IMG/VR virus record: IMGVR_UViG_3300042549_009629 | Coordinates: 1 to 53,926 of that record | Length of the DNA: 53,926 nt | Origin: a virus | Direction: 5' to 3' (one strand) | Shown: one piece after another, positions 8,792-35,248 of the stretch | How the letters are laid out: every line of letters starts with the position of its first letter | Numbering within the stretch: the first letter of the stretch is position 1 | Position numbers and translations under genes: made by a program | Notes under the pieces: generated by a model | Seen by the model: only the letters and a program-made list of their open reading frames with translations | What the model was told of the DNA's origin: nothing | The model's database searches: none

Positions 8792-10501
8792 TTATAGAGA
8801 AGACAAACCTGATACGAATACACGACCATAAAATTCTGGACGAATCATTTTCTTAGCGTAACGAGTCAATAAACCTTTACGTGGAGTAAACGTTTCTGGG
8901 TCATACACCAATGGAGTCATGATTAATGGAACATATGGAGCAAATACAGCACCTGTTTCAAGGAATTGAGATCCTCTATAACCCATCAAGATAACGTTTT
9001 CAGTCATATAAGGGTTTTTATAAACAGTGTAACGGTTGTTCAAGTTACCTGATTTTTGGATACCGAATGCGTAAGACGATTTAGTTACATCACCATCAGA
9101 AGTTGAAGCAAATCCTGGGATTGATTCCAATACAGTTGCTACTGATGGAGAACATACTAAGAAATTTGCACCACCACGTAGTGTTTTTTGGTGAATCTTG
9201 TTAGACACTTTTTGGAATTTGGTACCCAAAGTTTGGAACCATTGACCTTGTGTGTTAAAGAATCCTAAATTATCATATCCTGTTTTAGCAGCGTTTAATG
9301 ACAAGTTATTTTGTGCATTCCAATATTCATCAGCAGCAGAAGCATCTTGAATCAACATATCTAAATTCTCTAAATCGATTTCTAGAGCGATATATTCAGA
9401 CATGATTGAAGTTAATTCAGCTTCAGCATCCAATGATTGGTATGCATTTAAATCTTGTGCAAACTCTGGTGTCCATTGTGCTTTCAATTTTCTTGTTTTA
9501 GCAACAATAGCTTCAGATTTCATTTTGATATCAATAGACGGGATAGCTAATGCGTCCGCAGCAGTTGATTCAGCATTTGGATAACCACCACCTAAAGGAT
9601 TAGATCCAGCACTAGATTTATCTTCAAAATCACCTCTGTTGTTATCAAGTGGTTGAATGTTGTAGAATAATGCATGAGAACCAACAGCTGTAGGAACATC
9701 AGCACTTGCTACTGCACCACCATAGATAAATGAAGCTGTTAAGTTAAGTGAAGTTGTACCAGTTACAGTTGTAAATTCAGGTAATAATTTAGCGTTAGTT
9801 GCAGGAGTTAAAGTTGAACCAGAAGCTAAGATAAATGCTCTAACACCTTTAACATCAGCATTTGATGGTAAACCAATAGATACTTTAGTATAAGATTGAG
9901 AAGATGAAACAAATTCTGCTCCGTATTTCAAATCTGACCAAGAAGCTGTTGCAACTGTAACTGTTGCTGAAGCTGTGAATTGGTTGATTGAATAAGCAAA
10001 TCTACCTGCACCATATAAACCACCAGTTGGGTCTCCACCAGCCGCTGGGTTAGTGTTACCGTACATTGAGGAAGTAGCACCATAAACATCTCCAGAAGGA
10101 CCGAAGTTACTAAATGGAGCGTTTTTACCACCTGCTTGTCCATATTGGAAATCTAGGAAAAATACAAGACCTGAAGGTAGATTCATTGGTTGTACAGACA
10201 TGAATTCTTTAGTTGATAAAGAACCAAATACTTTACGTACCAATGGAAGAGCTACACCAGCCCATTGCTCACCTTGTCCTACTGTAAAAGTAGCACCGCT
10301 ATTTCCAGTTGTGTTAGACTCAACAACTAATTGTTTTGCTTGATTTTCAAGAATCATAGCCATGTTGTTTTTATCAACTTCGCTTCCTATTCCTTCTAAT
10401 AAGCCTGTTTTAGACCATTTTGACGCCATTCTAGCCGCGTCGTTCTGCATGTTTTTCCAACCACCTGCAGCGCTTTCGAGTAATGAATTAATACTTGACA
10501 T
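8792..10501 (-). CDS. 23: Major capsid protein, T4 gp23-like
   Basis: A 569-aa protein matching the gp23 family: the N-terminal prohead peptide contains ILENQAKQLVVE, followed by GVALPLVRKVFGS and FMSVQPMNLPSGLVFFLDFQYG. The C-terminal PLVYDPETFTPRKGLLTRYA is also family-typical. T4 gp23 is cut by the gp21 protease after Glu65; here Glu61 (in VVE/SNTTGN) is the likely site, giving a mature protein of about 508 aa. The mature start SNTTGNSGATFTVGQGE recurs in the small protein at 14446-14895. The start at 10501 follows an A-rich leader without a Shine-Dalgarno. It sits 28 nt after the scaffold gene and is closed by a strong terminator, as expected for a highly expressed capsid gene. Confidence 0.95.
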   Translation of the reverse strand: MSSINSLLESAAGGWKNMQNDAARMASKWSKTGLLEGIGSEVDKNNMAMILENQAKQLVVESNTTGNSGATFTVGQGEQWAGVALPLVRKVFGSLSTKEFMSVQPMNLPSGLVFFLDFQYGQAGGKNAPFSNFGPSGDVYGATSSMYGNTNPAAGGDPTGGLYGAGRFAYSINQFTASATVTVATASWSDLKYGAEFVSSSQSYTKVSIGLPSNADVKGVRAFILASGSTLTPATNAKLLPEFTTVTGTTSLNLTASFIYGGAVASADVPTAVGSHALFYNIQPLDNNRGDFEDKSSAGSNPLGGGYPNAESTAADALAIPSIDIKMKSEAIVAKTRKLKAQWTPEFAQDLNAYQSLDAEAELTSIMSEYIALEIDLENLDMLIQDASAADEYWNAQNNLSLNAAKTGYDNLGFFNTQGQWFQTLGTKFQKVSNKIHQKTLRGGANFLVCSPSVATVLESIPGFASTSDGDVTKSSYAFGIQKSGNLNNRYTVYKNPYMTENVILMGYRGSQFLETGAVFAPYVPLIMTPLVYDPETFTPRKGLLTRYAKKMIRPEFYGRVFVSGLSSL

Positions 10502-11954: not shown

Positions 11955-12587
11955 TTAAAATATAGGGCAAGTACCTTTAGCACACAAAATTTCAGTCAAT
12001 AATGAATTTGTACGTGCATATGGATCTAAATATGTTGTTCTAGATTCATTTAATGAACCATTTTTCATCCATGAATCTGGGTTAGATGGGTTGGAAACTA
12101 AATCCCAAGTTAGCAATTCAAAGTCGTCTTGAACTTCCATTACTCCATCTGATTCTTTCAATGAACCCATTCCACGAGATGAAATACCAATAATTAAACC
12201 GTTATTAACTAACGCACCCGCTATACGACCAGATACTGTACCTTTTTCTCCTGGGTCTGAAAATATTTCAACCATACCTAAAATTTCATCTCCCTCCCAC
12301 CATATTTTTCTTATAGCGTGAGATGCATTTTTTAAATTGATAATCTGTGAGTCCGGATGATCCAGCTCACCACATGTTTCAGTTGTTCTCTGTTGGATTT
12401 TACGTTGGAAATTGTCGATTTCACGCTCCCATAACTCTCGTTTATAATATCTCCCGTTACCGTTTTTTATTTCAACAGTAGCCAAAATACCTTCAACAAA
12501 AACATTTCCACCGTTTCGCATTCCTTCTAAAATACGAACTGGTTTCGGAACAAATTGTCTGGTTTCTATTAAGAGTTGTTTATCCAT
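11955..12587 (-). CDS. 21: Prohead core protease, T4 gp21-like (peptidase S80)
   Basis: A 210-aa serine protease of the T4 gp21 type. The catalytic His is in GELDHP (His77) and the Ser in GISSRGMGS (Ser136 or Ser137), the expected order and spacing; the upstream strand region GNGRYYKRELWERE is also family-typical. gp21 degrades the scaffold and trims capsid and internal proteins after (I/L)-x-E during head maturation. The gene is 2 nt downstream of a 618-aa head-region protein and ends in a terminator. The same cleavage consensus is found near the N-terminus of many accessory proteins in this window, so its substrate set may be unusually wide. Confidence 0.9.
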   Translation of the reverse strand: MDKQLLIETRQFVPKPVRILEGMRNGGNVFVEGILATVEIKNGNGRYYKRELWEREIDNFQRKIQQRTTETCGELDHPDSQIINLKNASHAIRKIWWEGDEILGMVEIFSDPGEKGTVSGRIAGALVNNGLIIGISSRGMGSLKESDGVMEVQDDFELLTWDLVSNPSNPDSWMKNGSLNESRTTYLDPYARTNSLLTEILCAKGTCPIF

Positions 12588-20953: not shown

Positions 20954-20970
20954 TTTGTATATTTTTATTT

Positions 20971-20978
20971 ATAAATAT
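20971..20978 (-). promoter_or_regulatory. Intergenic octamer ATATTTAT upstream of 316-aa gene
   Basis: An exact octamer 17 nt before the ATG at 20953; it overlaps the last base of the upstream stop codon. The plus strand reads TTATAAATATT, with a full TATAAATA. Confidence 0.45.
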
Positions 20979-21508
20979 TAAGGAAATAACGTCTGTTTAA
21001 CTTTTTCAATTCTTTCCTCAACAGAACCCGATAAATGAATATAGTTTTTTATTTTAGATTTATTTTGAGTTATAATTTTTTGAATTTCTCTATCAACGTC
21101 TGTTCTATAATCTGCATCTGTAGTTCGAACTCCATTATCCTCAATTTCAACTCCTTCAGGTGAAATGTAAAATATATAATCGTATTTTCTAATTAAATGT
21201 GATGCCGCTTGACATACTTCATCTCCAATATAGTATGGAATAGATTTAGCTAAACACGTAAATGCCATTACATCAATTACTGTTCGATCTGTTATTACTC
21301 TAGAATGAAGTAATTCAGAAGCACGCTCAGCTAAAAATATAAATTGACCTTCTATTGTTGAATCTGTATTTAAAGGTATACCTAAATCACGTAAATATTT
21401 TGAACGCTCTGTTGCAAAGTAAAATTCTTTAAATTCAGGTAATTCTTTTAAAGCATTAACCAATGTAGTTTTACCTACAGACATTGTTCCTGTAAATCCT
21501 ATTTTCAT
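20978..21508 (-). CDS. NadR-like P-loop nucleoside kinase / AAA-type NTPase (176 aa)
   Basis: A P-loop at residues 6-15 (GTMSVGKTTL) is followed by an early conserved stretch FATERSKYLRDLGIP. A DRTVIDVMAF segment (Walker-B/lid-type Asp-Arg) and a C-terminal DREIQKIITQNK complete the fold. The architecture matches the AAA_28/NadR ribosylnicotinamide-kinase-like group, which phosphorylates small nucleosides such as nicotinamide riboside; dNMP kinase activity is an alternative. It starts 1 nt after the FAD dehydrogenase gene. The window also encodes an NMNAT-like nucleotidyltransferase (30637-32325), so both chemical steps of NAD salvage could be present. Confidence 0.65.
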   Translation of the reverse strand: MKIGFTGTMSVGKTTLVNALKELPEFKEFYFATERSKYLRDLGIPLNTDSTIEGQFIFLAERASELLHSRVITDRTVIDVMAFTCLAKSIPYYIGDEVCQAASHLIRKYDYIFYISPEGVEIEDNGVRTTDADYRTDVDREIQKIITQNKSKIKNYIHLSGSVEERIEKVKQTLFP

Positions 21509-21509
21509 A

Positions 21510-22826: not shown

Positions 22827-22851
22827 TATTTATTTTATAAGTTTAATATAC

Positions 22852-22883
22852 AAAAAAAGAAGTGACCTCCCAAGGGAGGCCAC
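22852..22883 (-). terminator. Rho-independent terminator after the accessory operon
   Basis: On the minus strand, the stem GTGGCCTCCC/GGGAGGTCAC has one G-U wobble and is followed by a seven-T tract after TTC. On the plus strand the same position would be an A-C mismatch, so the structure is selected on the minus strand. It ends the long transcript 33-22.9 kb. Confidence 0.88.
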
Positions 22884-22908
22884 AGATCTCTATTAATTTT
22901 TTTAAGTC

Positions 22909-22927
22909 GACAGGCTATGAATCTGTC
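22909..22927 (-). other. Small stem-loop between stop codon and terminator
   Basis: The inverted repeat GACAG/CTGTC with a 9-nt loop lies 7 nt after the stop at 22934 and about 25 nt before the main terminator hairpin. Followed by CGACTTAAAAAAA on the minus strand, it may be a 3-prime-end stabiliser or a weak pre-terminator; it could also be chance. Confidence 0.3.
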
Positions 22928-22933
22928 TATATG

Positions 22934-23209
22934 TTATGCTTTTTTTACTGATCTTACACTATCACCTTTTGTAAAAAGATTATCGTCTTTTGCTATACCT
23001 TTCCAAAAGTTTTGTGGGTTGATATCTGAAGCTATATCTTTGGCTGTAAGTGTATATTTAGTTTCTTCAACACCATCTCTATCATCTACAGTATAACTAA
23101 CAGTATATTTGCCAGGTTTAAGATTTTTTAAAGGAGTACTTTTTAATTCAGATTCATTAAGAATACTTTTAATTTCTTCTTTAATAAGGTGTTTTAATCT
23201 ATCATTCAT
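22934..23209 (-). CDS. Small protein with capsid-targeting-like helix and beta domain (91 aa)
   Basis: The first 20 residues (MNDRLKHLIKEEIKSILNES) form an amphipathic helix with IKE at 9-11. It is followed by a small beta-rich segment, LKPGKYTVSYTVDDRDGVEE then TKYTLTAKDIASDI. No family was recognised. It is the last gene of the accessory operon, ATGA-coupled to the cupin-like gene and followed by the terminator. If the N-terminal peptide is removed on packaging, the mature protein would be only about 75-80 aa. Confidence 0.55.
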   Translation of the reverse strand: MNDRLKHLIKEEIKSILNESELKSTPLKNLKPGKYTVSYTVDDRDGVEETKYTLTAKDIASDINPQNFWKGIAKDDNLFTKGDSVRSVKKA

Positions 23210-23466
23210 GATTTATGTATCTTTAATTTTAATGTTCCTGTTCCTTTAATAACACGATGCCACTCATGTCTTGGGATAAATATACGTTCTTTTAGTGAGG
23301 TAGGCAAGCAATTATCTAATTGAAGTTGCCAATTTGTTTCATTTAGAATTTCAATTGTTCTATCTTCATCATCACGATGCCATAACAATTCAATTGGGTC
23401 TATATTTTCGTTAAACTCACGAATAATATATTTATCTGTAACTTCTATGTCTGTGTATGGATGCAT
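23206..23466 (-). CDS. Small cupin-like phage protein (86 aa)
   Basis: Conserved elements are ELLWHRDDEDRTIEIL, a central WQLQLDNCLP, and IFIPRHEWHRVIKGTGTLKL. The alternating beta pattern with WHRD and EWHRV histidines suggests a minimal cupin-type barrel, as in small proteins of large T4-like phages whose function is unknown. No metal site can be proven by eye. It overlaps both neighbours by 1-4 nt. Unlike its neighbours it has no N-terminal amphipathic helix. Confidence 0.5.
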   Translation of the reverse strand: MHPYTDIEVTDKYIIREFNENIDPIELLWHRDDEDRTIEILNETNWQLQLDNCLPTSLKERIFIPRHEWHRVIKGTGTLKLKIHKS

Positions 23467-24065
23467 TAAATATCAAGTAATTTTATATTACCCTCAGAAT
23501 CATAGCCAAATTGTTCTGTGTGTATATCTAGTTTTGTTTTACCCATTATAGATGATACTTTAATTAAAAAATCAATCCATTTTTTTAATAAGTCTGGGGT
23601 TGATGTTAGGGATAATAAAGTATTTAATTCTTTTTTTAAAGAAGAGGAGGGAGTGTTTAGAAATAAATGATATAGTAAGCCAATAAAGTCTAGTCCCTCT
23701 AAATTATCATTTTCCATTAAATCATCTAATAAAATTGAATATTTTCTTTTTTTTTCACTACGCCATTTTAAATTAAAGAATTCTGTTTGTAATTTTTCAA
23801 GCTCATTAATAGCTTTTTCAGTATTTAATTTTTCTAAAACAGCATATTTGTCTGTTACTTTATAAACAATTGGGAAAATATCGGGGTGTTTTTGGAAGGT
23901 TGTTATTTGGTCTTTATTAATAGATTCTCCTTCATATGGGTCAAAAGTTTTTATTACTTTATTAGAATCTTTAGAATATGGGTAAATAATATGTTCAGAT
24001 CCTTGTCCTATAGGTTCTTTACCAGATATAGAAATTTCTTTTAATATGTCTATTAATTTTATCAT
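23466..24065 (-). CDS. Minimal protein-kinase-like fold protein (199 aa)
   Basis: After an N-terminal helix MIKLIDILKEISISG (LKE at 8-10) come recognisable kinase-fold landmarks: Gly-rich loop IGQGSEHIIYPY (19-30), a VAIK-like VIKTF (Lys39), a hinge-like YAVLEKL (74-80), a catalytic-loop-like LDIHTEQFGY (Asp180, Gln185 in place of Asn) and a DFG-like LLDI (Asp198). The protein stops one residue after that Asp, so the activation segment and the rest of the C-lobe are missing. It may be an active minimal kinase, a pseudokinase or an NTP-binding protein. It is ATGA-coupled to the Cys-rich gene upstream. Confidence 0.55.
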   Translation of the reverse strand: MIKLIDILKEISISGKEPIGQGSEHIIYPYSKDSNKVIKTFDPYEGESINKDQITTFQKHPDIFPIVYKVTDKYAVLEKLNTEKAINELEKLQTEFFNLKWRSEKKRKYSILLDDLMENDNLEGLDFIGLLYHLFLNTPSSSLKKELNTLLSLTSTPDLLKKWIDFLIKVSSIMGKTKLDIHTEQFGYDSEGNIKLLDI

Positions 24066-24499
24066 TCTCCTTTACGTTCTTGCCATTCATAAGATATACT
24101 ATCTTTAACTATAGGACCACCTTTAGCCCACGTTCTACAAGTACGAGCTGAATGGCATTTGAAACTATGCATCCAACAATATCCTAATCTACCATCATTA
24201 TCTGATAATGGGCCAGGCATGCAATCTTCCATTCTTGGGGAGATATCAAACGCTGCACAATTAGCACATAATGATTGTTTAGCAGCTTCAACTGTTGTAT
24301 CCCAATGTTCTGCTAATTCATCCCAATAGTCTCCAGGTTCATCAACATTTAAAGGACCATATTTAATGTAATCTGCTTTAATAGATGAGTCTCTATTTTT
24401 AGTGTTAAGTTCTAGATTTTGGGTAGGAAGAGGGCAAGTCATAGCAGCTTCATATAATTTTCCTTCAGCTAAATATTTTCTTAAATCAAAGTTATCCAT
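24062..24499 (-). CDS. Cys-rich conserved phage protein (145 aa)
   Basis: I place the start at ATG 24499, directly after the upstream stop (24501), rather than at an alternative GTG at 24607 that would overlap it by over 100 nt. The N-terminus MDNFDLRKYLAEGKLYEAAM carries LAE at 10-12 and shares the pattern FDL-K-L-E-K with the protein at 28455-28910. The body has eight or more Cys (CANCAAFDISPRMEDC, GYCWMHSFKCHSARTCRTW), suggesting zinc binding. The set TCPLPTQN...NTKNRDSSIK and CANCAAFD recurs in large marine phages as far as I recall; the function is unknown. Confidence 0.6.
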   Translation of the reverse strand: MDNFDLRKYLAEGKLYEAAMTCPLPTQNLELNTKNRDSSIKADYIKYGPLNVDEPGDYWDELAEHWDTTVEAAKQSLCANCAAFDISPRMEDCMPGPLSDNDGRLGYCWMHSFKCHSARTCRTWAKGGPIVKDSISYEWQERKGE

Positions 24500-24500
24500 A

Positions 24501-24971
24501 TTATTTTGTTTTACCCCATTTAGTGCCTTTACCAGGTGTTTTACATTGTGCTGCTGTAGGGCGACATGAAGGATATTTAGAACGTTTTTCTCCTTCTTCT
24601 CTACCACATGCTTTATATCCTGTTATTTCACCATCTTTTCTAATAGGTGCATTACAATCAACCCATCCACCTTTTTTACCAGGTGCACCTTTACGTTTGA
24701 ACCAAGTTCGAAGAGTTTCTTTAACTTTTTCAAGAATCAATTCTTCTTTCACTTTAGCAAATCCTGATCCATAAGGAGCAGCTTTACCTGATTGTGGGTC
24801 ATCTGTTTCTTTTATGTCTTTCCAAATATCTCCTTTACGACATCTAACTACAGCACCGGATTTATAAGCCGATGGTTTATCAAATTTGCGATCAGCAATG
24901 CGTAAGCATCTGTCGCGTTTTTCTTTTTCCTCTTGTAAGACTTCTTGTATGATTTTTTTTAATCTATCCAT
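24501..24971 (-). CDS. Basic Cys-containing protein, DUF5872-like (156 aa)
   Basis: The start is set at ATG 24971 (overlapping the upstream TGA by one base) rather than the TTG six bases upstream. The N-terminal helix MDRLKKIIQEVLQEEKEKRD has IQE/LQE sites. Two modules follow: RCLRIADRKFDKPSAYKSGA with VVRCRKG, and a C-terminal basic module LRTWFKRKGAPGKKGGWVDC...YKACGREEGEKRSKYPSCRP, which matches the DUF5872-type pattern found in giant viruses and large phages. It is strongly basic, with paired Cys and likely zinc- or nucleic-acid-binding. The neighbour at 24971-25651 carries a related Cys/Arg-type C-terminal module. Confidence 0.6.
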   Translation of the reverse strand: MDRLKKIIQEVLQEEKEKRDRCLRIADRKFDKPSAYKSGAVVRCRKGDIWKDIKETDDPQSGKAAPYGSGFAKVKEELILEKVKETLRTWFKRKGAPGKKGGWVDCNAPIRKDGEITGYKACGREEGEKRSKYPSCRPTAAQCKTPGKGTKWGKTK

Positions 24972-25651
24972 CACCAAAATCCTGAAAATGAAGATTTTAA
25001 TCCAAGTAACTTAGCATAACGTGGTAATCTACATGACCAATAAGATGCTTTTGTTCTGTCTGTTTTATTTTTACAATCGTGACGTGCCGCGAATGCTCTA
25101 CGTGCTTCTGGGTTGTTTATTTTAGCTGATAGGCCTGATGTATCTCCAAAACTAACTTTTTTGATTTTTTTAGTTTTTGGATTTTTTACATAAACATAGA
25201 ATTTTTTAGATCCACCACGTTTTGGTTTTCCAATTGGAGGATTTTTCTTTTTGTCTTCTGCTTCTTCAAGTTCGTCTTCCTCTAACATAGGTAAGTCTAA
25301 AGGTACTTTTTTACCTTCATACATTCCATATTCACCTAAGCTAGTTTCAAGTAAAATTTCTTTATCATCATCGTTTACATGAATAATTTCACGTAAATAT
25401 AAGTAACGAGCTTCCGACCATAAATTAAGAAACGATTGCGAACCATATCGGAACGTGTTTTCGGTAAGTGGGAGTTGTTTATCCACGTGGTAACGCAGAT
25501 TTTCCGATAATATATCTTTTTTAACTAAACTTTCGTTTAGTACTACACCAGTGTTACCTACATTATCACAATCGTGACACCCACAATTGCATTTATCTTT
25601 TTTAGGTGGGGTAGATAGTACTTCTTTTATTAATTGTTTTAAACGTTCCAT
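24971..25651 (-). CDS. Cys-rich/basic accessory protein (226 aa)
   Basis: The N-terminal helix MERLKQLIKEVLSTPP (IKE at 8-10) is followed by a Cys cluster CNCGCHDCDN (22-31), an acidic middle (LEEDELEEAEDKKK) and a C-terminal basic domain. That domain contains KKFYVYVKNPKTKKIKKVSF, then FAARHDCKNKTDRTKASYWS and CRLPRYAKLLG. The last domain is a recurrent module in large phages and giant viruses, in my recollection of unknown function. It has its own ATATTTAT octamer only 4 nt upstream of the ATG. Pairing with the DUF5872-like gene (1-nt overlap) suggests a joint role, possibly DNA binding in the virion. Confidence 0.6.
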   Translation of the reverse strand: MERLKQLIKEVLSTPPKKDKCNCGCHDCDNVGNTGVVLNESLVKKDILSENLRYHVDKQLPLTENTFRYGSQSFLNLWSEARYLYLREIIHVNDDDKEILLETSLGEYGMYEGKKVPLDLPMLEEDELEEAEDKKKNPPIGKPKRGGSKKFYVYVKNPKTKKIKKVSFGDTSGLSAKINNPEARRAFAARHDCKNKTDRTKASYWSCRLPRYAKLLGLKSSFSGFW

Positions 25652-25655
25652 ATTA

Positions 25656-25663
25656 ATAAATAT
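25656..25663 (-). promoter_or_regulatory. Intergenic octamer ATATTTAT upstream of 226-aa gene
   Basis: An exact octamer in the 11-nt gap, 4 nt before the ATG and touching the upstream stop. A promoter this close to the start would give a leaderless mRNA, so this copy tests whether the motif acts in transcription or translation. Confidence 0.4.
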
Positions 25664-26889
25664 TATTTGTTTGTTCTAATATTTATCCTTAAAGGTAATA
25701 CTTTACCTGCAGCATTCCTAGCTACAATTTGATATACTAAAGGAACTTTTTTACCACCCTCTAATACTTCACTTTCAGTTTCAATTCGAATTTCAAGTAC
25801 TTTAGTTGAAGGACCAGGATATTTTACTTTAACTGAATCTGATTTTAAGTCACCTACCATTTTATAAGCGTCTTCTGGGGATGCTACGTGATAAATAAAT
25901 AATTTTCCTCCAGGTTTTTCTCTAACATACCAGTAACCAAATCCAAAAGATGAAGCTAATAGGTTTTTAACTTTATTTATATCTACATCATTAATAGATT
26001 CCCAACTATTTGGTGTGCCTGTTTGATTAATATAATTGTTTAATCCATCTGCTATCCTTTGTGAATCAATTTTTAAAATATCAAATATTTCTTGAAATAA
26101 TGGATTATCTCCATATTTTGATTGATCAAATATTACTTTACCTTCTTTATCAAATACAATAAATGGAATATTTCCACCATTATAAATGGCAGAACCACCA
26201 ACATTTTTAATTGATAAATAATAGGTTTGTTTTGGTGCTTCAATTACAATATCTGCAATAATATCACCTATTTTTTGAGGCCCATCAAATGAAAGTTTTC
26301 TTGAAGTATCAGAAGCACCTGCAAAATAAATATCTTTAGGTACTAATTGAGAAGGATCAATTCCTAGAGTAGTAAATATTTGTTTTACTTCATAATCTTC
26401 AATTGAATCTAAAGGAGTTCCAGCCGCAGATTGTAATTTTCCAAGTAAACCTTGTTCATATTTTTCACCTTCATTTGCTCCGCCTGCTAGAACAATTTGA
26501 ACTTGACCTTCACCTTCTAAATCAAATTCAAACATATTGTATTTTGAACTATCGTTAGGCCCTTCTTTAGGACCATATACTTTAATTTTAGGTGAGTTAA
26601 ATACACTGTTTAAGATAGCAATAAATTTATCTTTATCTATTTTATTTGGATTACCTATCCTGTATGTGTCAGCCATTTTGGTTAAACCTGCTTCTTTACC
26701 TGGTTGGGAAGATGCTATAGTATCAATAGCTTTACGTGTATTAGAGGCTTTAGTTCCCTCTCTCAAGTCAATATTATGTTTAAATAGTTCACGTTCTAAA
26801 ATCAAAATATCCTGAGTATTTTTCATGTCAGGATATCCTTTTGGGAATTTATAAGATATGCTATTTAAAAATTGTTCTAAAATATCCAT
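25663..26889 (-). CDS. Accessory protein, possible nuclease-like core (408 aa)
   Basis: A mixed alpha/beta protein. The segment GDIIADIVIEAPKQTYYLSI then KNVGG (about 212-236) has the D-x(n)-x-x-K spacing of PD-(D/E)xK-type restriction-enzyme-like cores, but one acidic position would be replaced by Ser, so this is tentative. Residues 30-75 carry a helical EGTKASNTRKAIDTIASS segment. The C-terminal third (YWYVREKPGGKLFIYHVASP) is beta-rich. The N-terminus MDILEQFLNSISYK is a hydrophobic helix without the cleavage motif. It overlaps the previous gene by one base. Otherwise unrecognised. Confidence 0.45.
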   Translation of the reverse strand: MDILEQFLNSISYKFPKGYPDMKNTQDILILERELFKHNIDLREGTKASNTRKAIDTIASSQPGKEAGLTKMADTYRIGNPNKIDKDKFIAILNSVFNSPKIKVYGPKEGPNDSSKYNMFEFDLEGEGQVQIVLAGGANEGEKYEQGLLGKLQSAAGTPLDSIEDYEVKQIFTTLGIDPSQLVPKDIYFAGASDTSRKLSFDGPQKIGDIIADIVIEAPKQTYYLSIKNVGGSAIYNGGNIPFIVFDKEGKVIFDQSKYGDNPLFQEIFDILKIDSQRIADGLNNYINQTGTPNSWESINDVDINKVKNLLASSFGFGYWYVREKPGGKLFIYHVASPEDAYKMVGDLKSDSVKVKYPGPSTKVLEIRIETESEVLEGGKKVPLVYQIVARNAAGKVLPLRINIRTNK

Positions 26890-27362
26890 TATGCTTCAGG
26901 TGTTTCTTCTGGTGGGGTTTCAGCTGGGGTTTCAGCTGGAGGTGTTTCTTCAGATGGTGGGACTCCTAAATCTTCCATTCCCGGTTCAACTGTTTCTTCT
27001 TTAGTTCCGTATCTTAATAGGTTAGCTATAGATTGTGCTGCTCTTTCTTCTTCAGGTAAATTTAATAAATAATATTTTTTACCTTCTACTTGAGCGATCC
27101 AACTACGTTTACCATATATTAAATAAAATGATTGATCATTTTTTAAATTCATTCTAAATGTAGTAGGACGTGGTGCAACCCAATCAATTGAAGCTAAAAA
27201 ACTATCATATTCTGGGGTTAATAGATCAACAAGAACAGCTTTTAATTCAGGAAATTTTGTTAGCTCATCATATTGAACAGCTTCCTCAGATGTAATCGTT
27301 TGATTAGAATACACTTGTTTGATTAAAACCCTTAATTTATGTTGAAGATCTTTAAGTGTCAT
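26889..27362 (-). CDS. Accessory protein with Pro/Glu/Thr-rich tail (157 aa)
   Basis: The N-terminal amphipathic helix MTLKDLQHKLRVLIKQVYSN resembles neighbouring N-termini but lacks a clear (I/L)-x-E. The core (40-115) is alpha/beta with FRMNLKNDQSFYLIYGKRSW then IAQVEGKKYYLLNLPEEERA. The tail is a low-complexity string of ETPPAETPAETPPEETPEA. No family was recognised. One-base overlaps link it to genes on both sides, so it is translated with the block. Confidence 0.5.
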   Translation of the reverse strand: MTLKDLQHKLRVLIKQVYSNQTITSEEAVQYDELTKFPELKAVLVDLLTPEYDSFLASIDWVAPRPTTFRMNLKNDQSFYLIYGKRSWIAQVEGKKYYLLNLPEEERAAQSIANLLRYGTKEETVEPGMEDLGVPPSEETPPAETPAETPPEETPEA

Positions 27363-28249
27363 TATTTTTGTTTAAGTTTAGCTAAAACAGCTTCTTTAAT
27401 TTTTGCTTTCATTGCAGTTGATGTAGCAATTTTACCTGCTTTTTCATCCGACATTCCTTTATCTTTTAAAGTATCGTATATTTCACCTCTTTTTTTGACT
27501 TGTTTTTTAGACATTTTTTCGTCAATAGCACCTTCTTTAGCAATATTTTTAAAAGGCATACCTTTTTCTCTAGATTTTTCAGGAGTCATTTCTTCATCAA
27601 TAACATCTTCTTCATTAGCAATACCTACCATAGCATCAATCTTTGGTTCGTCTAATTCAAACTCAAGATAATGTTTTGCACTTGAAATCATATTTCTAGC
27701 AGTAGTAAGTTTTGATTGCCACCATGCTGGGAAGTCTACTTCTTGTGGTCCTTCAAATTGATCAACCATTTTATATAATTCTATAGCATATCTAGCTATA
27801 TGGGCTAATTCTGCTTTAATCATATGTGGTTCATTATCTTGGTGACCTAAATCAAGATCTTCTGAAATTGGTTCGTCAGCAATTAGTTCTTCTCCTGTTT
27901 CAAATTCATCAATTACACCTCTTGCTTTTAAAATATCAGCTTTAGTTACTTTACCATCACCTGTTAAATCAGGAAAAGATTTTTTCTTTTCATTTAACGG
28001 ATTAGATAAAGCTGCTTGAATCATTTCTTTTAATTTTTGCTCTTGGTCCATTGGTTCTTCTGTTGTTGGTTCTTCAATATTATTGCCTGCCTTTTTTTTA
28101 ACTTGGTTTACAGCAGAGGCATAAGCTATTCGCTCTGCCTCTATACCGTATTTTTTTACCAAATTATCTCTTCGAGAATTAACGATGGCTAGAAATTTAT
28201 CGTAAATTTCCTTTGATTCATCAGATGAAAATGCCTCGTTAATATTCAT
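27362..28249 (-). CDS. Accessory protein with dockerin/EF-hand-like calcium loop (295 aa)
   Basis: Three recognisable parts: a helical N-terminus (MNINEAFSSDES, then AERIAYASAVNQVKKKAG); a single EF-hand/dockerin-type loop FPDLTGDGKVTKADILKARG (about 92-111) with the D-x-x-G-D-G-x-V-T-x-x-D ligand pattern; and a conserved helical segment MIKAELAHIARYAIELYKMV, then FPAWWQSKLTTARNMISSAK (about 143-193). The C-terminus is Lys-rich and helical (MSDEKAGKIATSTAMKAKIK). The loop and the WWQSK segment recur together in large marine phage proteins as I recall. A calcium-stabilised virion or internal protein is possible. Confidence 0.55.
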   Translation of the reverse strand: MNINEAFSSDESKEIYDKFLAIVNSRRDNLVKKYGIEAERIAYASAVNQVKKKAGNNIEEPTTEEPMDQEQKLKEMIQAALSNPLNEKKKSFPDLTGDGKVTKADILKARGVIDEFETGEELIADEPISEDLDLGHQDNEPHMIKAELAHIARYAIELYKMVDQFEGPQEVDFPAWWQSKLTTARNMISSAKHYLEFELDEPKIDAMVGIANEEDVIDEEMTPEKSREKGMPFKNIAKEGAIDEKMSKKQVKKRGEIYDTLKDKGMSDEKAGKIATSTAMKAKIKEAVLAKLKQK

Positions 28250-28251
28250 TT

Positions 28252-28425
28252 TTAAGCTGCTTTGTCTTCTGCAGTTGAAGTTTTCTTAAATTCAGCTGCT
28301 AGTTTTTTAATTGTGTTAGCTGCACTACGTGCTCTACCACGAGCCGCTTTAGAAGTTTTACCATTTTCTATTTCTAAAATAGCTACTTGTTCTTTGATCG
28401 AGTTTAAAATTTCTGTTGTGTTCAT
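28252..28425 (-). CDS. Histone H1-like (Hc1-type) small basic protein (57 aa)
   Basis: A short gene between 28249 and 28455, hand-translated: MNTTEILNSIKEQVAILEIE, then NGKTSKAARGRARSAANTIK, then KLAAEFKKTSTAEDKAA and TAA. It has an acidic/helical first half and a basic second half with the KAARGRARSAANTIKKL pattern, closely resembling the Hc1-family histone-H1-like proteins of Bacteroidota (KAAGTRARKASLELEKLL-type). The likely role is DNA binding and compaction, either of phage DNA in the capsid or of host DNA after infection. It starts 29 nt after the upstream stop and ends 2 nt before the next ATG. It supports a Bacteroidota host. Confidence 0.65.
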   Translation of the reverse strand: MNTTEILNSIKEQVAILEIENGKTSKAARGRARSAANTIKKLAAEFKKTSTAEDKAA

Positions 28426-28454
28426 AGATTTTATTTTTATATAGATTTAATTGT

Positions 28455-28910
28455 TTACTGTTCTCCTCCACCAATATATTCGCTTACGAAAAATTTAAGT
28501 GTGTTTCCTACTTGTGTTTCAAGTTTTTCATTATTCATACCTTTAGCAATTTTAAATGCACTCATTAAATGGTCCATCAATTCACCTTCAGTTCCTTCCA
28601 TATCAGCAACTACATCTTCTAAACCACCATTAGCAGGTGCTTCTTCAGCAGGAGCATCTTCAGCTGGTATTTCTTCAGTTGTATCTGTTGTTTCAGTATC
28701 AGTTGTTTCAACATCTGCTACTTCTTCGTCTTTTTTCTTTTTAGCTTCATCTAGGTCTTCATCAACATTTAATTCAGCTAATACCATTTCACGAATTTTA
28801 TCACGCATGTTACCTTCATGAATGCTAGTGTTTTTACCTATTATATCATTTAGATTCTCAAGAGCTTTGCTTTCTTTTAAGAATTTTTTTAAATCAAAAT
28901 TATCTGACAT
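28455..28910 (-). CDS. Acidic accessory protein with two targeting-like helices (151 aa)
   Basis: The N-terminus MSDNFDLKKFLKESKALENL carries LKE at 11-13 and shares FDL-K-L-E-K with the Cys-rich protein at 24062-24499. A second internal helix MRDKIREMVLAELNVDEDLD (about 36-55) looks like another copy of the same kind of element. Residues 60-112 are extremely acidic with Ala/Pro/Thr repeats (TDTETTDTTEEIPAEDAPAE). The C-terminal 40 aa form a helix (AFKIAKGMNNEKLETQVGNT). No enzymatic motif. An acidic mid-region next to a basic Hc1-like protein could reflect a partnership, but that is speculative. Confidence 0.5.
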   Translation of the reverse strand: MSDNFDLKKFLKESKALENLNDIIGKNTSIHEGNMRDKIREMVLAELNVDEDLDEAKKKKDEEVADVETTDTETTDTTEEIPAEDAPAEEAPANGGLEDVVADMEGTEGELMDHLMSAFKIAKGMNNEKLETQVGNTLKFFVSEYIGGGEQ

Positions 28911-28914
28911 TTTT

Positions 28915-29541
28915 TTATTTTTTAGTTATCGTGTATAAATATTCGGAAAGTAATGTTCCTATCACTCCTACTTTTTGTCTTATGTAAATCCATTCATCTT
29001 TTGTTAAATGATGTTTTTCTTGGAATGATATAGTTAATACACCTATTAAATGATTATCTAAACTATGTAAACCAACCATGCAAATTGATTTAGTACCAAA
29101 TTGAGTTGATAAATATTCTAACCCAAAAGTATCTTCAACACCATTTACATCATCAAGTGATAATTCATTATCTTTGTAAACTTTAGATAATACCCTTGGA
29201 AATAAAGATACTGGGATATTCTGGAATGTGGTTTGAATATTTGGAGTTTCGGGGGTGCATTTTTCGTAAAATATAGAGAATTTTTGAATAGAACGTCCTG
29301 TAGGGTAGAACATGCCTCCATTATGGAATTGGGCAATCCAAATTCGATCACATTCTAATTCTTCCATCATTTGTTCTAATTGAGTATCAATTAAAGTCGA
29401 GGTTTCAAGGGCATCACGCATTGGAGCAGATGTATCTTTATTTTCCATTTTGAGTTTAACCCAAGTTACTAAAATAGGTCCAAACACCGCTGTAATTAAG
29501 GCTACTAAAATAGTTGTTAACATCATAAAAGTTTCCATCAT
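28915..29541 (-). CDS. Membrane-anchored GAF-like domain protein (208 aa)
   Basis: An N-terminal transmembrane helix (MLTTILVALITAVFGPILVTWV, residues 7-28) is followed by a short coiled-coil linker and an alpha/beta domain of about 150 aa. Its pattern (CDRIWIAQFHNGGMFYPTGR, then SICMVGLHSLDNHLIGVLTI, then WIYIRQKVGVIGTLLSEYL) matches GAF-type sensor domains. GAF domains bind small ligands such as cyclic nucleotides; here no output domain is attached. It is ATGA-coupled to the zinc-ribbon gene. It might sense a host or defence signal at the membrane, but function cannot be read from sequence. Confidence 0.6.
   Translation of the reverse strand: MMETFMMLTTILVALITAVFGPILVTWVKLKMENKDTSAPMRDALETSTLIDTQLEQMMEELECDRIWIAQFHNGGMFYPTGRSIQKFSIFYEKCTPETPNIQTTFQNIPVSLFPRVLSKVYKDNELSLDDVNGVEDTFGLEYLSTQFGTKSICMVGLHSLDNHLIGVLTISFQEKHHLTKDEWIYIRQKVGVIGTLLSEYLYTITKK
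28935..28942 (-). promoter_or_regulatory. ATATTTAT octamer near the end of the GAF-like gene
   Basis: An exact octamer 24 nt before the ATG at 28910, but inside the last codons of the upstream gene instead of in a gap. The spacing is similar to the intergenic copies. It is weaker evidence than the nine intergenic sites because the octamer also occurs by chance in coding regions. Confidence 0.25.
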
Positions 29542-30110
29542 TTTTTAAGAGAATTTAAATAGTTTATTACTTCATCTAGGGATTCTACTGCACGTTCTTT
29601 ATTAATCCCTCCAACCCATTTTTCAACATCACCTGCTTCTGTAATAAAACTATTATTGCTCTCTAATAACTTATCTTCTATAAAACTCTTATATTCTTCA
29701 ATTTGGTTATCAATTTCTTGATTAAACATATCTTTAGTATATGACTCCCATTCACCTTTAAGTTTTAATGTAGTTTCAAATACTGTTCTACAATCTAAAC
29801 ATTCACCATAAGATTTATAGTAAAATGGATCTAATTGTTTATCCATAACTTGTTTACATTTAGGACAAAATAAAGGAACTGCTATTGATTTAAATTTATC
29901 TAATTTAGTAACATTTTCTCTAACTCCATCTCGGATAGTCCAAGTTTTTCCTTTATATTCCCAAACATCACCTTCTTTATGGTCTTCTTCTTGTTCACCT
30001 TGATATCCAACACCTAGTGTAGTTCGACTACCATGTTTACCTTTAACAAGATTGCGAAGGCGTTCAACATCTCGTTTTTGAAACTCTTTTTTTAATACTG
30101 AATCTGACAT
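29538..30110 (-). CDS. Zinc-ribbon protein of unknown function (190 aa)
   Basis: A treble-clef/zinc-ribbon pair CPKC (about 82-85) and CLDC (about 104-107) lies in the middle of the protein. Upstream is GDVWEYKGKTWTIRDGVREN, a conserved beta-hairpin-like segment; the C-terminus is helical (LLESNNSFITEAGDVEKWVG). The N-terminus is charged (SDSVLKKEFQKRDVERLRNL). A similar layout occurs in large T4-like phages as far as I recall. A nucleic-acid or late-transcription accessory role would fit a zinc ribbon. It overlaps the HAD gene upstream by TAATG. Confidence 0.5.
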   Translation of the reverse strand: MSDSVLKKEFQKRDVERLRNLVKGKHGSRTTLGVGYQGEQEEDHKEGDVWEYKGKTWTIRDGVRENVTKLDKFKSIAVPLFCPKCKQVMDKQLDPFYYKSYGECLDCRTVFETTLKLKGEWESYTKDMFNQEIDNQIEEYKSFIEDKLLESNNSFITEAGDVEKWVGGINKERAVESLDEVINYLNSLKK

Positions 30111-30634
30111 TATAATCCTAATTGTTTGAGTTGTTCAATAGTGTTAGCTGCTGAGGTGTGTAAAATTCCTATTCCACCGGCTGCATTCCAACTATCAATT
30201 GTATCTGCTCTATCGTCTATAAGTATACGGTTTTTTCCTGAAAGTTCTTGTTTGAATCGAGCAGGTTTAAAATAAATATTTTTCATTCCATCTAAACGTT
30301 GAGCCCATTCACGTTTTCCTTGTTTAGATCCTGGATCTAGTGATGGGGCTGTTAATACATATGGTTTATATTGTTTAATATAATCCCATAAGTTTTGCCC
30401 ATCAGACATCCAAGGTAAATTAACCCAATAATCATATTCGGTTAAATCTTTTTCTTTTAAACTGTTAGTTAATAATTTCCAAAATTGGTTTTTACCTTGC
30501 TCATTAGCATGCGAAGTAGACATTCCGGTTAAGTCTTCATATCCTTTGTCGAAATCAACTAATACACCATCCATATCACAAAAAATGATATATTTTGGTT
30601 TTATAGCTTCATATAAATCAAGTAAATTGGGCAT
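30110..30634 (-). CDS. HAD-superfamily phosphatase, 5'(3')-nucleotidase-like (174 aa)
   Basis: Motif I is FCDMDGVLVDF (about 18-28) with the double-Asp nucleophile; motif II LTAPS (about 93-97) supplies Thr; a Lys lies in FKPARFKQEL; motif IV is ILIDDRADT (about 137-145). The length and cap type fit 5'(3')-deoxyribonucleotidase-like enzymes that dephosphorylate (d)NMPs or nucleic-acid ends. It lies directly downstream (2 nt) of the nucleotidyltransferase-zincin fusion gene and of the P-loop kinase, which together could form a nucleotide- or end-processing set. All catalytic positions appear intact. Confidence 0.75.
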   Translation of the reverse strand: MPNLLDLYEAIKPKYIIFCDMDGVLVDFDKGYEDLTGMSTSHANEQGKNQFWKLLTNSLKEKDLTEYDYWVNLPWMSDGQNLWDYIKQYKPYVLTAPSLDPGSKQGKREWAQRLDGMKNIYFKPARFKQELSGKNRILIDDRADTIDSWNAAGGIGILHTSAANTIEQLKQLGL

Positions 30635-30636
30635 AT

Positions 30637-32325
30637 TTAAAATTTAGATAAATTTAATGCCCCTAATCTGCTTCTCCAAAGATTAAGTATTTCTTCTTTT
30701 TGTTCCGGAGTTATATCTTGAGCATTTAAATAAGTGTCTATAACATCTCTAAACGGACGTTTTTCTTTTTTAGCACGTAAATACATTCCTTGTAAATTAG
30801 CATCTACTTCTTTTTCTAATTTAAAATATTGAGCCGGAGGGAGTAAATCAGCATCTATTAATTTTCGAATTAGTTCATCATCTTCCATAGATTTACCTTT
30901 ATTTAAATTAGGACCTTCACCATGAGTTAAATGTTCTATTTCATGACGAACTACATCTTTTAAATTCATTGATATTTCTTCCCAATATTCTGGGAGTAAT
31001 TCGGGGTCAATTTCGAAACGGATTTGTAAATACCCTGTTTCAGAATCTGCTCCACCATCTACTTTAAGTCCTTTAGAATCAGGTACAAATGAAATATTTG
31101 CATCTATATCTATTTCTAAATCACTATCATTAAATGTTTGGTCAATTCTAGATGCTTCAGCAGCATTATTATAATCACTTTTCCATTTATTAAATATAGT
31201 AGAAGAAATTTGATTTGTAATTTTATCGTAACGACCTTCGTTTAATGATGGAGTATTATCATGTCCACATTTATGACAAATGTATAAATCATCTCCACCA
31301 TCTTTTATTTTCCAACTCCATCCACAATCATCACATACTATTCTATCTCCAAGTACACCTTCAGTTAATGTATCTGTCCAATTTCGAAACATCATATTAC
31401 CTTTTTCATATGCTTCTCTTTCAATTTCAGGTAGATCTCCGTCTTCGTTTGTATTTGTAGTATTGATATTTGTTAATTTATCATTACAATTTTGTTCGTG
31501 GTGGATCATTTCATGCGCAAATGAACGCATAACATCTTTTGGATGACGATCCATAGTGTAAAGTACTATAACGCGATTATTCGGGTCATAATATGCTGTT
31601 TTACCGAAAAAATCTTTTGCATTTTCACTGTCATCATCTACAAATTTAACTTTAGGTAAAGGACGAATATTCATTCCTTTTTCTAACATATATTCTGTAA
31701 GAGATTTAACTATTGGAGGAAAACTAAATTTGCTAGGTTCAGCATACATTATTTCTTCAATTGGTGTTTTGGTTAAAATACTCCAAACTTTATTTCGTTC
31801 TTCATCATTTAACTCAACGGGTAAATAACGTTGAAAATTTTCAAAATTATTATCTATTAACGCGGCTCGTGCTTTAGTACCACTAACGCCTTGATCACCG
31901 TGGATAACAATTGGTTCAAAATTATTATATTTACCCTTCATGCTATCAAATCGTTTGATATCTTTTAAATCAAACTCTCCTCTAACTCCTACTACAGGTA
32001 AATAAAAATTTTCAGGGTTATTTTTAATAATTGAATTTACATCTTGAACTGGGGAGTTACTATCTGCTATTTGGATTTCAACATTATTAGGTAAATATTT
32101 TTTATATATGTTCCATATAGCTAAACTTTCATCTTTAGTTACACCGTCTCTATCTTTATGACCTATTAAAACTATTACTTTATTTACTTCAGGTCTTTTT
32201 GCAATCTCACTTGCCAAATAAAAATGTCCTGCTGTTGGGGGTTTAAACCCACCAGGAACTAAAGCAATGCCTTGTTTTGTTTCCTCTAATAAAGGTTGAA
32301 TGAGTGATTTAACTAACGAATTCAT
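30637..32325 (-). CDS. Nucleotidyltransferase fused to two zincin-like domains and a zinc ribbon (562 aa)
   Basis: Domain order: an N-terminal helix with LLE (12-14); an NMNAT/cytidylyltransferase-type domain (about 18-190) with PGGFKPPTAGHF (24-35) and the SGTKARA signature (148-154); a zincin-like domain with HEMIHHE (271-277) and downstream Glu in EIEREAYEKG; a zinc ribbon Cys331/Cys334/Cys350/Cys353; and a second zincin-like domain with HEIEHLTHGEG (461-471) and downstream EVDANLQG. Both metal motifs look intact. A nucleotidyltransferase joined to protease-like domains in one chain is unusual. Roles could be NAD or nucleotide metabolism plus peptide cleavage, possibly delivered with the virion. 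It overlaps the kinase gene upstream by 17 nt. Confidence 0.7.
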   Translation of the reverse strand: MNSLVKSLIQPLLEETKQGIALVPGGFKPPTAGHFYLASEIAKRPEVNKVIVLIGHKDRDGVTKDESLAIWNIYKKYLPNNVEIQIADSNSPVQDVNSIIKNNPENFYLPVVGVRGEFDLKDIKRFDSMKGKYNNFEPIVIHGDQGVSGTKARAALIDNNFENFQRYLPVELNDEERNKVWSILTKTPIEEIMYAEPSKFSFPPIVKSLTEYMLEKGMNIRPLPKVKFVDDDSENAKDFFGKTAYYDPNNRVIVLYTMDRHPKDVMRSFAHEMIHHEQNCNDKLTNINTTNTNEDGDLPEIEREAYEKGNMMFRNWTDTLTEGVLGDRIVCDDCGWSWKIKDGGDDLYICHKCGHDNTPSLNEGRYDKITNQISSTIFNKWKSDYNNAAEASRIDQTFNDSDLEIDIDANISFVPDSKGLKVDGGADSETGYLQIRFEIDPELLPEYWEEISMNLKDVVRHEIEHLTHGEGPNLNKGKSMEDDELIRKLIDADLLPPAQYFKLEKEVDANLQGMYLRAKKEKRPFRDVIDTYLNAQDITPEQKEEILNLWRSRLGALNLSKF

Positions 32326-33064
32326 TTATTTTATTTTTAGCAGTATCTATAGTATCAAATTCAGGTAATTGATTAACCATAGATTCAATATCTTTATTTA
32401 ATTGTAATTTTTCAGCATCTGATTTTGCTTGTTCTTCTGGGGATTTAGGTTTACCTACAGATGTAGATGCTTGGATAAATGGTTCAAGTAAATCAGTATT
32501 AAATCCTCTATTAGCATCTTTTGGGTTATTATTTAATAATATAAAATTATTTCCAAATGCTTCTTTATATGTTTCAATGTTTTTATTTACATCTCTCCAA
32601 GTTCGTAACACAATCCCAGGCATTAAACTTCTATCACGTTGTTGATTACGTTCAAGTGAAGTTAAGGGTGAAACATAAATCATTAACATTAATGTTTCAT
32701 ACCCTAAATCTTCTAGTTGTTGTTTTTTCTTTAATACAGGTCCAGATGCAGCACCAGTTCCATCAATAACAATATTATTTTTATTTTCTATTGATTGAGC
32801 TAATTTATCTTGAGTTACTTTTCTAGCTTGAGCTTGTAATTTAGCAGATTGAGATAATTCATCCGGAGTAAAATCTTTTTGTTTTAAACCGATTCCACTA
32901 GCTTTTAACAATGCTTCATAAGTATCGTCTGAATTGATAGAGGTAAATGTGTTAGGTATAAGTTTAGAAGATATATAGGATTTTCCACTCCCTGCAGGAC
33001 CTGCTAAGAATATAGCTTTAGGACCATCTTGCATTTCTTTTAAAAGTTGAACTAAACTTATCAT
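32309..33064 (-). CDS. P-loop kinase, zeta-toxin/polynucleotide-kinase-like (251 aa)
   Basis: The N-terminal helix MISLVQLLKEMQDG (LKE at 8-10) precedes the Walker A motif AGPAGSGKSYISSKL (about 21-35). INSDDTYEALL follows the P-loop as in zeta-toxin-type kinases, and IVIDGTGAASG (Walker-B-like) and a lid with RNQQRDRSLMPG are present. Substrates in this group include UDP-sugars, polynucleotide 5-prime ends and small nucleotides; none can be chosen here. The C-terminal 70 aa are charged and helical. It is separated from the RecB-like nuclease by 11 nt and overlaps the fusion gene downstream. Confidence 0.7.
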   Translation of the reverse strand: MISLVQLLKEMQDGPKAIFLAGPAGSGKSYISSKLIPNTFTSINSDDTYEALLKASGIGLKQKDFTPDELSQSAKLQAQARKVTQDKLAQSIENKNNIVIDGTGAASGPVLKKKQQLEDLGYETLMLMIYVSPLTSLERNQQRDRSLMPGIVLRTWRDVNKNIETYKEAFGNNFILLNNNPKDANRGFNTDLLEPFIQASTSVGKPKSPEEQAKSDAEKLQLNKDIESMVNQLPEFDTIDTAKNKINEFVS

Positions 33065-34792: not shown

Positions 34793-35248
34793 TTATTCTT
34801 GGGTAACAAAGTCTCTTCTAAAAAATTTACCCAAAATATTATCGTTTATCCATTCATCTGAATTTTCTAAAACACCTAATTGAAATAAATATTTACATTC
34901 ATAGTACGTTAAAAGTTTTTTATTATTAACAGTACATAGGATTTTACGAGTAAATTCTTTTTGTTTACCTTGTTTTATTAATTCAAGTATAGGTTTAGCT
35001 GAACCATAATAGGTTTTCCAATCAGATTCTTTTTGAGTAGTAACAGTTGTTGGTTTGCGTCCTCTACCTGTTTGTTCAGCAAGTTCTTTTTTAGTTAATT
35101 TCTTTTTAACATTATGATATAATACTTTTTTACCCAAATATGATTTACCTGATGGTTCATGTATTGTGATGTAGATAAAACCGTATGTTCCTTCTGTAAA
35201 ATCTTCAAGAGAATTTATCCATCCTCCGTTGTAAAACCATTTTTCCAT
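34793..35248 (-). CDS. GIY-YIG-like nuclease (151 aa)
   Basis: A variant GIY-YIG pattern: TYGFIYITIHEPSGKSYLGKK (about 21-41), split here as YGFIYI and YLGKK; DWKTYYGSAKPILELIKQGK; FTRKILCTVNN; and the catalytic-Glu helix LLTYYECKYLFQLGVL, ending with an N-x-x-GKFFRRD motif. The basic insert NVKKKLTKKELAEQTGRGRK between the first two motifs is typical of a T4-like phage subfamily. It may be a free-standing homing-type endonuclease or a structure-specific nuclease used in replication or packaging. It lies between the baseplate genes and primase, 17 nt from the latter. Confidence 0.6.
   Translation of the reverse strand: MEKWFYNGGWINSLEDFTEGTYGFIYITIHEPSGKSYLGKKVLYHNVKKKLTKKELAEQTGRGRKPTTVTTQKESDWKTYYGSAKPILELIKQGKQKEFTRKILCTVNNKKLLTYYECKYLFQLGVLENSDEWINDNILGKFFRRDFVTQE

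What the first reader, a model, noticed from the sequence alone, without database searches (positions are those of the whole stretch)
30637..32325. One protein joins a nucleotidyltransferase, two HExxH zincin-like domains and a zinc ribbon
NMNAT-type motifs (GGFKPPTAGH, SGTKARA) precede HEMIHHE, a four-Cys ribbon and HEIEH, all with intact key residues. I know of no characterised enzyme with this order. A packaged form could modify and cleave host proteins on entry, loosely analogous to T4 Alt.
Basis: partly seen in the sequence, partly recalled or inferred. Interest (0 to 1): 0.75.

Follow-up and report, generated by a model that had tools for sequence, protein, structure and literature searches.

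The report
Phage multi-enzyme protein, probably capsid cargo
A virus of aquatic bacteria, related to phage T4, encodes one protein that joins a nucleotide-transferring enzyme to two metal-dependent peptidase-like domains; it starts with a tag like the one T4 uses to load proteins into its head, and it carries putative cutting sites between its parts, so it is probably packed into the virus particle, cut up there and injected into the host.

Summary
The ORF is real: 562 aa, - strand, 30637-32325. The fusion is not an assembly artefact: independent contigs at 55-74% identity and a cultured relative, Flavobacterium phage immuto (40% over 99%), carry the same domain series. The NTase fold and the first zincin fold are supported by structure comparison; the second zincin has an invariant HExxH...E and zincin topology, but no independent fold match. 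Catalytic residues are invariant. "NMNAT" is only a superfamily call.

It is one of more than 20 module orders in related phages; several modules also occur as single genes. Genes of this late region share N-terminal leaders ending in [LI]xE, the rule of T4's prohead protease gp21. The same motif marks module junctions: 38 of 56, against 13.0 expected; [LI]xD, [VF]xE and tail proteins show no excess. The cyanophage NTase relative T4-GC190 was found in S-SM1 virions by proteomics (PMC3037559) and begins MKKFSAFLNE|A; T4 IPIII begins MKTYQEFIAE|A.

Best reading: a T4-type "polyvalent" protein, loaded by a leader, probably cut into separate enzymes by the prohead protease, and injected. Packaging and cleavage of this protein are inferred, not shown. 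Substrates are unknown.

The parts
32284..32325 (-). N-terminal leader aa 1-14, MNSLVKSLIQPLLE|E: predicted helix with a gp21-type [LI]xE site; CTS-like
   Evidence: exact in 34 of 41 aligned rows
31765..32277 (-). NTase domain aa 17-187, CTP_transf_like/HIGH superfamily (NMNAT/PPAT fold); GGFKPPTAGH and SGTKAR
31729..31764 (-). low-confidence linker 1 (aa 188-199) with putative cut site PIEE191|I; in other phages zincin 1 is a stand-alone gene with leader ...LLNE|IYAEPSKF
31360..31728 (-). zincin 1, aa 200-322, HEMIH (31501-31515) plus glutamate helix EIEREAYEKG (31399-31428)
31237..31359 (-). linker 2 with zinc-ribbon cassette (four Cys, aa 331-353; 31267-31335), bounded by LTE322|G and LNE363|G
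30661..31230 (-). zincin-like domain 2, aa 366-555, HEIEH (30931-30945) plus glutamate helix EKEVDANLQG (30787-30816)
   Evidence: fold not matched independently
32309..33064 (-). neighbour: zeta-toxin-like P-loop kinase with leader MISLVQLLKE|M (leader in 59 of 61 homologues with complete N-terminus)
30110..30634 (-). neighbour: HAD 5'-deoxyribonucleotidase with leader MPNLLDLYE|A; fused to the polyprotein's C-terminus in L032 (ILQE|Y)
23466..24065 (-). further leader-bearing gene of the same region, MIKLIDILKE|I (kinase-like by eye, weak Pfam match)
11955..12587 (-). the phage's own prohead (head maturation) protease, candidate enzyme for the cuts
   Evidence: phrog_207, 5.2e-50
8792..10501 (-). 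T4-like major capsid protein, 57% identical to that of immuto; its propeptide also carries [LI]xE sites

Best explanation
It is a mosaic effector protein of a T4-like (immuto-like) myovirus, made with the late genes. The first 14 residues act as a capsid-targeting sequence that draws it into the prohead core. The phage's prohead protease then cuts after [LI]xE, removing the leader and, at the linkers, separating the NTase, the first zincin (with or without the ribbon) and the second zincin. The pieces are injected with the DNA. There the NTase adenylylates or cytidylylates a small molecule or a protein, and the zincins cleave or bind host proteins. Shown: the anatomy, module shuffling, the leader and junction motif statistics, and packaging of a homologous NTase in a cyanophage. 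Inferred: packaging, cleavage and injection of this protein. Guessed: the substrates.
For: Leaders: [LI]xE at residues 9-14 is 10.2% per position in the window's cargo genes and 1.2% in genes outside the head/cargo block; in immuto 13 of 24 cargo genes against 31 of 199 others, Fisher p=6.5e-5, shuffles P=0.0004. In 278 dereplicated N-termini from related contigs it is 5.9% against 1.4% background; [LI]xD is 0.8%. Junctions: [LI]xE in 38 of 56 against 13.0 (sd 3.1), none of 4000 random placements as high; [LI]xD, [VF]xE and [AGST]xE not enriched; other composite proteins, mostly tail, 20 of 110 against 21.6. This is the T4 gp21 rule L/I-X-E (PMC9026906). LTE322 and LNE363 are conserved (22/30, 16/16); low-confidence linkers 188-199 and 321-361 hold or touch the three sites. 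Modules also exist as leader-bearing genes. The phage has its own prohead protease. The NTase relative T4-GC190 was detected in S-SM1 virions (PMC3037559); that protein starts MKKFSAFLNE|A and was the only CTS-pattern hit in the genome; relatives start MKSFSQFIAE|V or MKTFLQFISE|A; T4 IPIII starts MKTYQEFIAE|A.
Against: No proteomics was found for any immuto-like phage. [LI]xE is short and also occurs inside the folded domains (211, 300, 446), so it is not sufficient. PIEE191 could be aligned in only 5 rows and is exact in 2. Junction motifs could be relics of fused leaders with no cleavage today. Five divergent NTase homologues (L044, L048, L050, L076, L078) start without any leader, and Pol-beta-first proteins (immuto, L035, L063) have no N-terminal leader. 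The cyanophage relative has the NTase but no zincins. Junctions were dereplicated but are not fully independent, and the CTS pattern for S-SM1 was written after seeing related cyanophage leaders.
Confidence: 0.55

Rival explanations
1. Packaged and injected as one intact multidomain polypeptide; the zincins act on it autoproteolytically or on host proteins, as proposed for polyvalent proteins by Iyer et al. 2017. The prohead protease removes at most the leader.
For: Polyvalent proteins typically carry zincins, for which self-processing is proposed; N4 virion RNA polymerase is packaged uncut (PMC5512222).
Against: The junction motif is specifically the prohead protease rule and is enriched only there. 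Single-zincin genes with the same kind of leader exist.
Confidence: 0.25
2. Not packaged: a cytoplasmic enzyme of infection, for example NadR-like NAD salvage or nucleotide metabolism, with fused domains for regulation. The leader is an unrelated docking peptide.
For: Phages encode NadM and NadR with HIGH NTase domains that counter NAD depletion (PMC9503650). An AAA_28 P-loop gene lies at 20978-21508.
Against: The cyanophage homologue is a virion protein. The leader type is shared by unrelated proteins of the region. No equivalog match to NadR, NadM or NMNAT.
Confidence: 0.15
3. The HExxH domains are not active peptidases but dead folds or other metalloenzymes (independent of how the protein is delivered).
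For: Pfam matches are all below cut-off. The second zincin had no independent fold match. One fold match of the first domain is an HExxH oxygenase (8s5f).
Against: HExxH and the downstream Glu are invariant in all homologues. Best structural neighbours of domain 1 include Wss1, IrrE/PprI and SPRTN, Z about 7.
Confidence: 0.2

Closest known systems
Polyvalent proteins of phages and conjugative elements (Iyer et al. 2017, PMC5512222)
   Same: Several disparate enzyme domains in one polypeptide, zincins as hub, ART and Pol-beta NTase modules among relatives, strong shuffling, near head genes
   Different: In a T4-like late block; core is a HIGH-type NTase (no cytidylyl- or adenylyltransferase in that paper's main text); gp21-type leader and junction motifs, not described there ('capsid targeting' absent)
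T4 internal proteins IPI-III and Alt
   Same: Short N-terminal targeting peptide cut by the prohead protease at L/I-x-E; diverse cargo behind a common leader; Alt also cut at its C-terminus (PMC9026906)
   Different: T4 cargo is single genes; here some cargo is fused, with the motif also between modules
Cyanophage cytidylyltransferase T4-GC190 (S-SM1, S-BM3)
   Same: Homologous NTase (phrog_395/3041), T4-type CTS, detected in virions
   Different: No zincin or ribbon; about 24% identity to the window NTase
Immutovirus gp88 ('NMN adenylyltransferase')
   Same: NTase, zincin 1, zincin 2; 40% identity over 99% of the query; same kind of neighbours
   Different: Extra N-terminal Pol-beta NTase; no ribbon; no N-terminal leader
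NadR / NadM
   Same: HIGH NTase domain, carried by phages
   Different: Fused to a P-loop kinase or Nudix there, to zincins here; no equivalog match

Membership tests
Polyvalent proteins | Disparate enzymatic domains in one polypeptide | tested here: met
   NTase + two HExxH domains; over 20 module orders in relatives
Polyvalent proteins | Encoded by a phage with portal-terminase packaging, near head genes | tested here: met
   Same-strand block with terminase, portal, protease, MCP
Polyvalent proteins | Packaged and injected | not testable with these tools
   Only by homology to T4-GC190
T4-type capsid cargo (CTS proteins) | N-terminal peptide ending in L/I-x-E | tested here: met
   LLE14; regional enrichment
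T4-type capsid cargo (CTS proteins) | Cleaved by the prohead protease inside the head | not testable with these tools
   Needs N-terminal proteomics
HIGH-superfamily NTase (CTP_transf_like) | Fold plus (H/T)xGH and S-x-T-x-x-R motifs | tested here: met
   Foldseek prob 1.0 to NMNAT/PPAT; motifs conserved; Pfam above cut-off only for relatives
NMN adenylyltransferase / NadR | Equivalog score | tested here: not met
   All NCBIfam hits far below cut-off
Zincin metallopeptidase, domain 1 | HExxH helix, Glu helix, small sheet | tested here: met
   Z 7.5 Wss1, 7.3 IrrE, 7.2 SPRTN; residues invariant. Z is below 8, but the top rows are nearly all zincin-like HExxH folds
Zincin metallopeptidase, domain 2 | HExxH helix, Glu helix, small sheet | tested here: inconclusive
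   Residues invariant in 19/19 and secondary structure fits; this part was barely tested by the fold search
T4 Alt (ADP-ribosyltransferase) | ART domain | tested here: not met
   No ART match in this protein; Tox-ART-HYD1-like modules occur in relatives L059, L063, L069, the Pfam match just below cut-off

The most novel reading that the evidence does not exclude
T4-like phages of this group package effector polyproteins whose modules are separated by prohead-protease sites, so that one capsid-loading leader delivers several enzymes and effector genes can be exchanged freely between stand-alone and fused forms: a capsid-processed effector polyprotein.
Probability: 0.45. Interest if true: 0.8.

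Novelty: new variant of a known kind. Interest (0 to 1): 0.64.

Why it matters
Leader plus cleavage site would make capsid cargo readable from sequence alone in a large group of aquatic T4-like phages and would predict dozens of injected enzymes (kinases, nucleotidases, ART-like, NTase, zincins). It gives a concrete processing rule for polyvalent proteins, for which zincin self-processing had been proposed, and suggests a reason why a 'cytidylyltransferase' is a core virion protein of cyanophages. It may also offer natural tags for loading proteins into phage heads.

Tried and rejected
T4 late-promoter octamer TATAAATA: 14 sites against 17.5 expected, uninformative. PADLOC and the plasmid collection: no match. 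The Baltic Flavobacterium phage paper (PMC7077304) does not mention immuto and gives no virion proteomics. Assembly-fusion explanation rejected. The first junction count over all composites was mixed (58/166 against 35.0); it was split afterwards into NTase/zincin polyproteins and other, mostly tail, composites, which then served as negative control. Foldseek on the C-terminal part gave nothing at E<=0.001; the VIA-align second look found zincins for domain 1 only. NMN specificity could not be supported.

Full report
WHAT IS THERE. The ORF 30637-32325 (-) is open, 562 aa, in a long same-strand block of genes. The block holds the T4-like major capsid protein, 57% identical to that of Flavobacterium phage immuto, the prohead protease (phrog_207, 5e-50), portal and large terminase. 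The window is therefore part of an immuto-like T4-type myovirus. The same protein occurs on independent contigs at 55-74% identity and in immuto at 40% identity over 99% of the query, so it is not an assembly fusion.

DOMAINS. An AlphaFold2 model on a 67-row alignment gives three folded domains (about 17-187, 200-322, 366-555) and low-confidence stretches at 188-199 and 321-361. The N-terminal domain matches NMNAT and phosphopantetheine adenylyltransferase structures and sequence profiles; no NCBIfam equivalog cut-off is reached, so the substrate is open. Domain 2 aligns with Wss1, IrrE, SPRTN, BepA, neprilysin and other HExxH folds at Z about 7. Domain 3 has the same order of helix, sheet, HExxH helix and glutamate helix, with residues invariant in 19 of 19, but was not tested alone.

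MODULARITY. Only the first 320 residues are shared by many homologues. Labelling the modules shows more than 20 orders: NTase with zincin 1; zincin 2 or an M78-type zincin in the third place; a zinc-ribbon cassette in changing positions; ART-like, Pol-beta NTase, DUF6934-like and nucleotidase modules. Zincin 1, the nucleotidase, the ART-like domain and others are also found as single genes. The window's own neighbour, the nucleotidase gene 30110-30634, is fused to the C-terminus of the polyprotein in L032.

LEADERS. Many genes of this block begin with a short peptide ending in [LI]xE: MNSLVKSLIQPLLE|E here, MISLVQLLKE|M, MPNLLDLYE|A, MIKLIDILKE|I, MERLKQLIKE|V nearby. In the window the motif at residues 9-14 is eight times as frequent in this block as in genes outside the head/cargo block; in immuto it is in 13 of 24 block genes (residues 7-20) against 31 of 199 others (p=6.5e-5). 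In 278 dereplicated N-termini of related contigs it peaks at residues 9-14 (5.9% against 1.4%), whereas [LI]xD does not (0.8%). T4's prohead protease gp21 cuts after L/I-X-E, and ten residues of IPIII suffice to load a protein into the head (PMC9026906).

JUNCTIONS. Junctions were defined by alignment of stand-alone proteins to the inside of larger ones. In the NTase/zincin family, 38 of 56 dereplicated junctions have [LI]xE close by, against 13.0 (sd 3.1) for random positions in the same proteins, none of 4000 trials as high. Other composite proteins of the same contigs, mostly tail proteins, show none of this (20 of 110 against 21.6), and neither do [VF]xE, [LI]xD or [AGST]xE. In the window protein the sites are PIEE191, LTE322 and LNE363, in or beside the predicted linkers.

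INDEPENDENT SUPPORT. The cyanophage core protein T4-GC190, a putative cytidylyltransferase, was found in purified S-SM1 virions (Sullivan et al. 2010, PMC3037559). It belongs to the same NTase families by profile (phrog_395 and phrog_3041) and its S-BM3 member hits the window protein by tblastn (2e-4). The S-SM1 protein begins MKKFSAFLNE|A and is the only hit of a CTS-like pattern in that 174-kb genome (the pattern was written with knowledge of related leaders). Relatives begin MKSFSQFIAE|V or MKTFLQFISE|A; T4 IPII and IPIII begin MKTYQEFIAE|A. Microcystis phage Mel-JY01 has an NTase protein with leader MGKLINILLSE|L a few genes upstream of its terminase.

MECHANISM. The most economical account is loading by the leader, cutting by the prohead protease, and injection. 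The steps shown are anatomy, motif statistics and packaging of a distant homologue. Packaging and cutting of this protein are inferred. The main weaknesses are leaderless homologues (L044, L048, L050, L076, L078), leaderless Pol-beta-first proteins (immuto, L035, L063), and the shortness of the motif, which also occurs inside domains.

PLACE AMONG THE KNOWN. It fits the idea of polyvalent proteins (PMC5512222), whose authors proposed processing by zincins. That main text holds no cytidylyl- or adenylyltransferase and no capsid-targeting sequence. It works like T4 internal proteins and Alt but is not Alt: this protein has no ART. I therefore call it a new variant of a known kind.

Noticed in passing
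window 20003-33064; immuto 101-119 kb; L001-L079: Many genes of the block between the primase/exonuclease and terminase genes carry recurring leaders of a few types (MIKLxDILKE, MKKSELKxLIKEE, MDNFDLKKFLxEN, MxxIIRMQKLAGIITE) on unrelated proteins.
   Followed up: partly
L088:17434-18600 (Microcystis phage Mel-JY01): 388-aa protein between prohead protease and major capsid protein with an ADP-ribosyltransferase-like C-terminus by eye (VYRAVSP...YVSTTLNP); possible Alt analogue. Pfam gives no hit.
   Followed up: partly
L088:6248-8167 and L174:7295-8269: The NTase of Mel-JY01 continues into a region with a KLDG ligase-like motif; in S-SM1 the gene next to T4-GC190 (DUF6267) has KWDGAPA. A possible recurring NTase plus ligase-like pairing.
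   Followed up: no
L040:18885-19403, L059, L063, L069: Tox-ART-HYD1-like domains, both as a stand-alone gene with leader MIKLLDILNE|S and as a module inside the polyproteins; the Pfam match is just below cut-off.
   Followed up: partly
window 34793-35248: SegE-type GIY-YIG nuclease by Pfam whose family is labelled 'NAD synthetase' in PHROGs and in immuto; the label looks wrong.
   Followed up: no
composites in L032, L057, L060, L069, L072, L073, L074, L075: A second recurrent linker peptide of the type DPFGLN[EQ][LFY]A[RK], followed by [LI]xE, lies between modules (seen).
   Followed up: no
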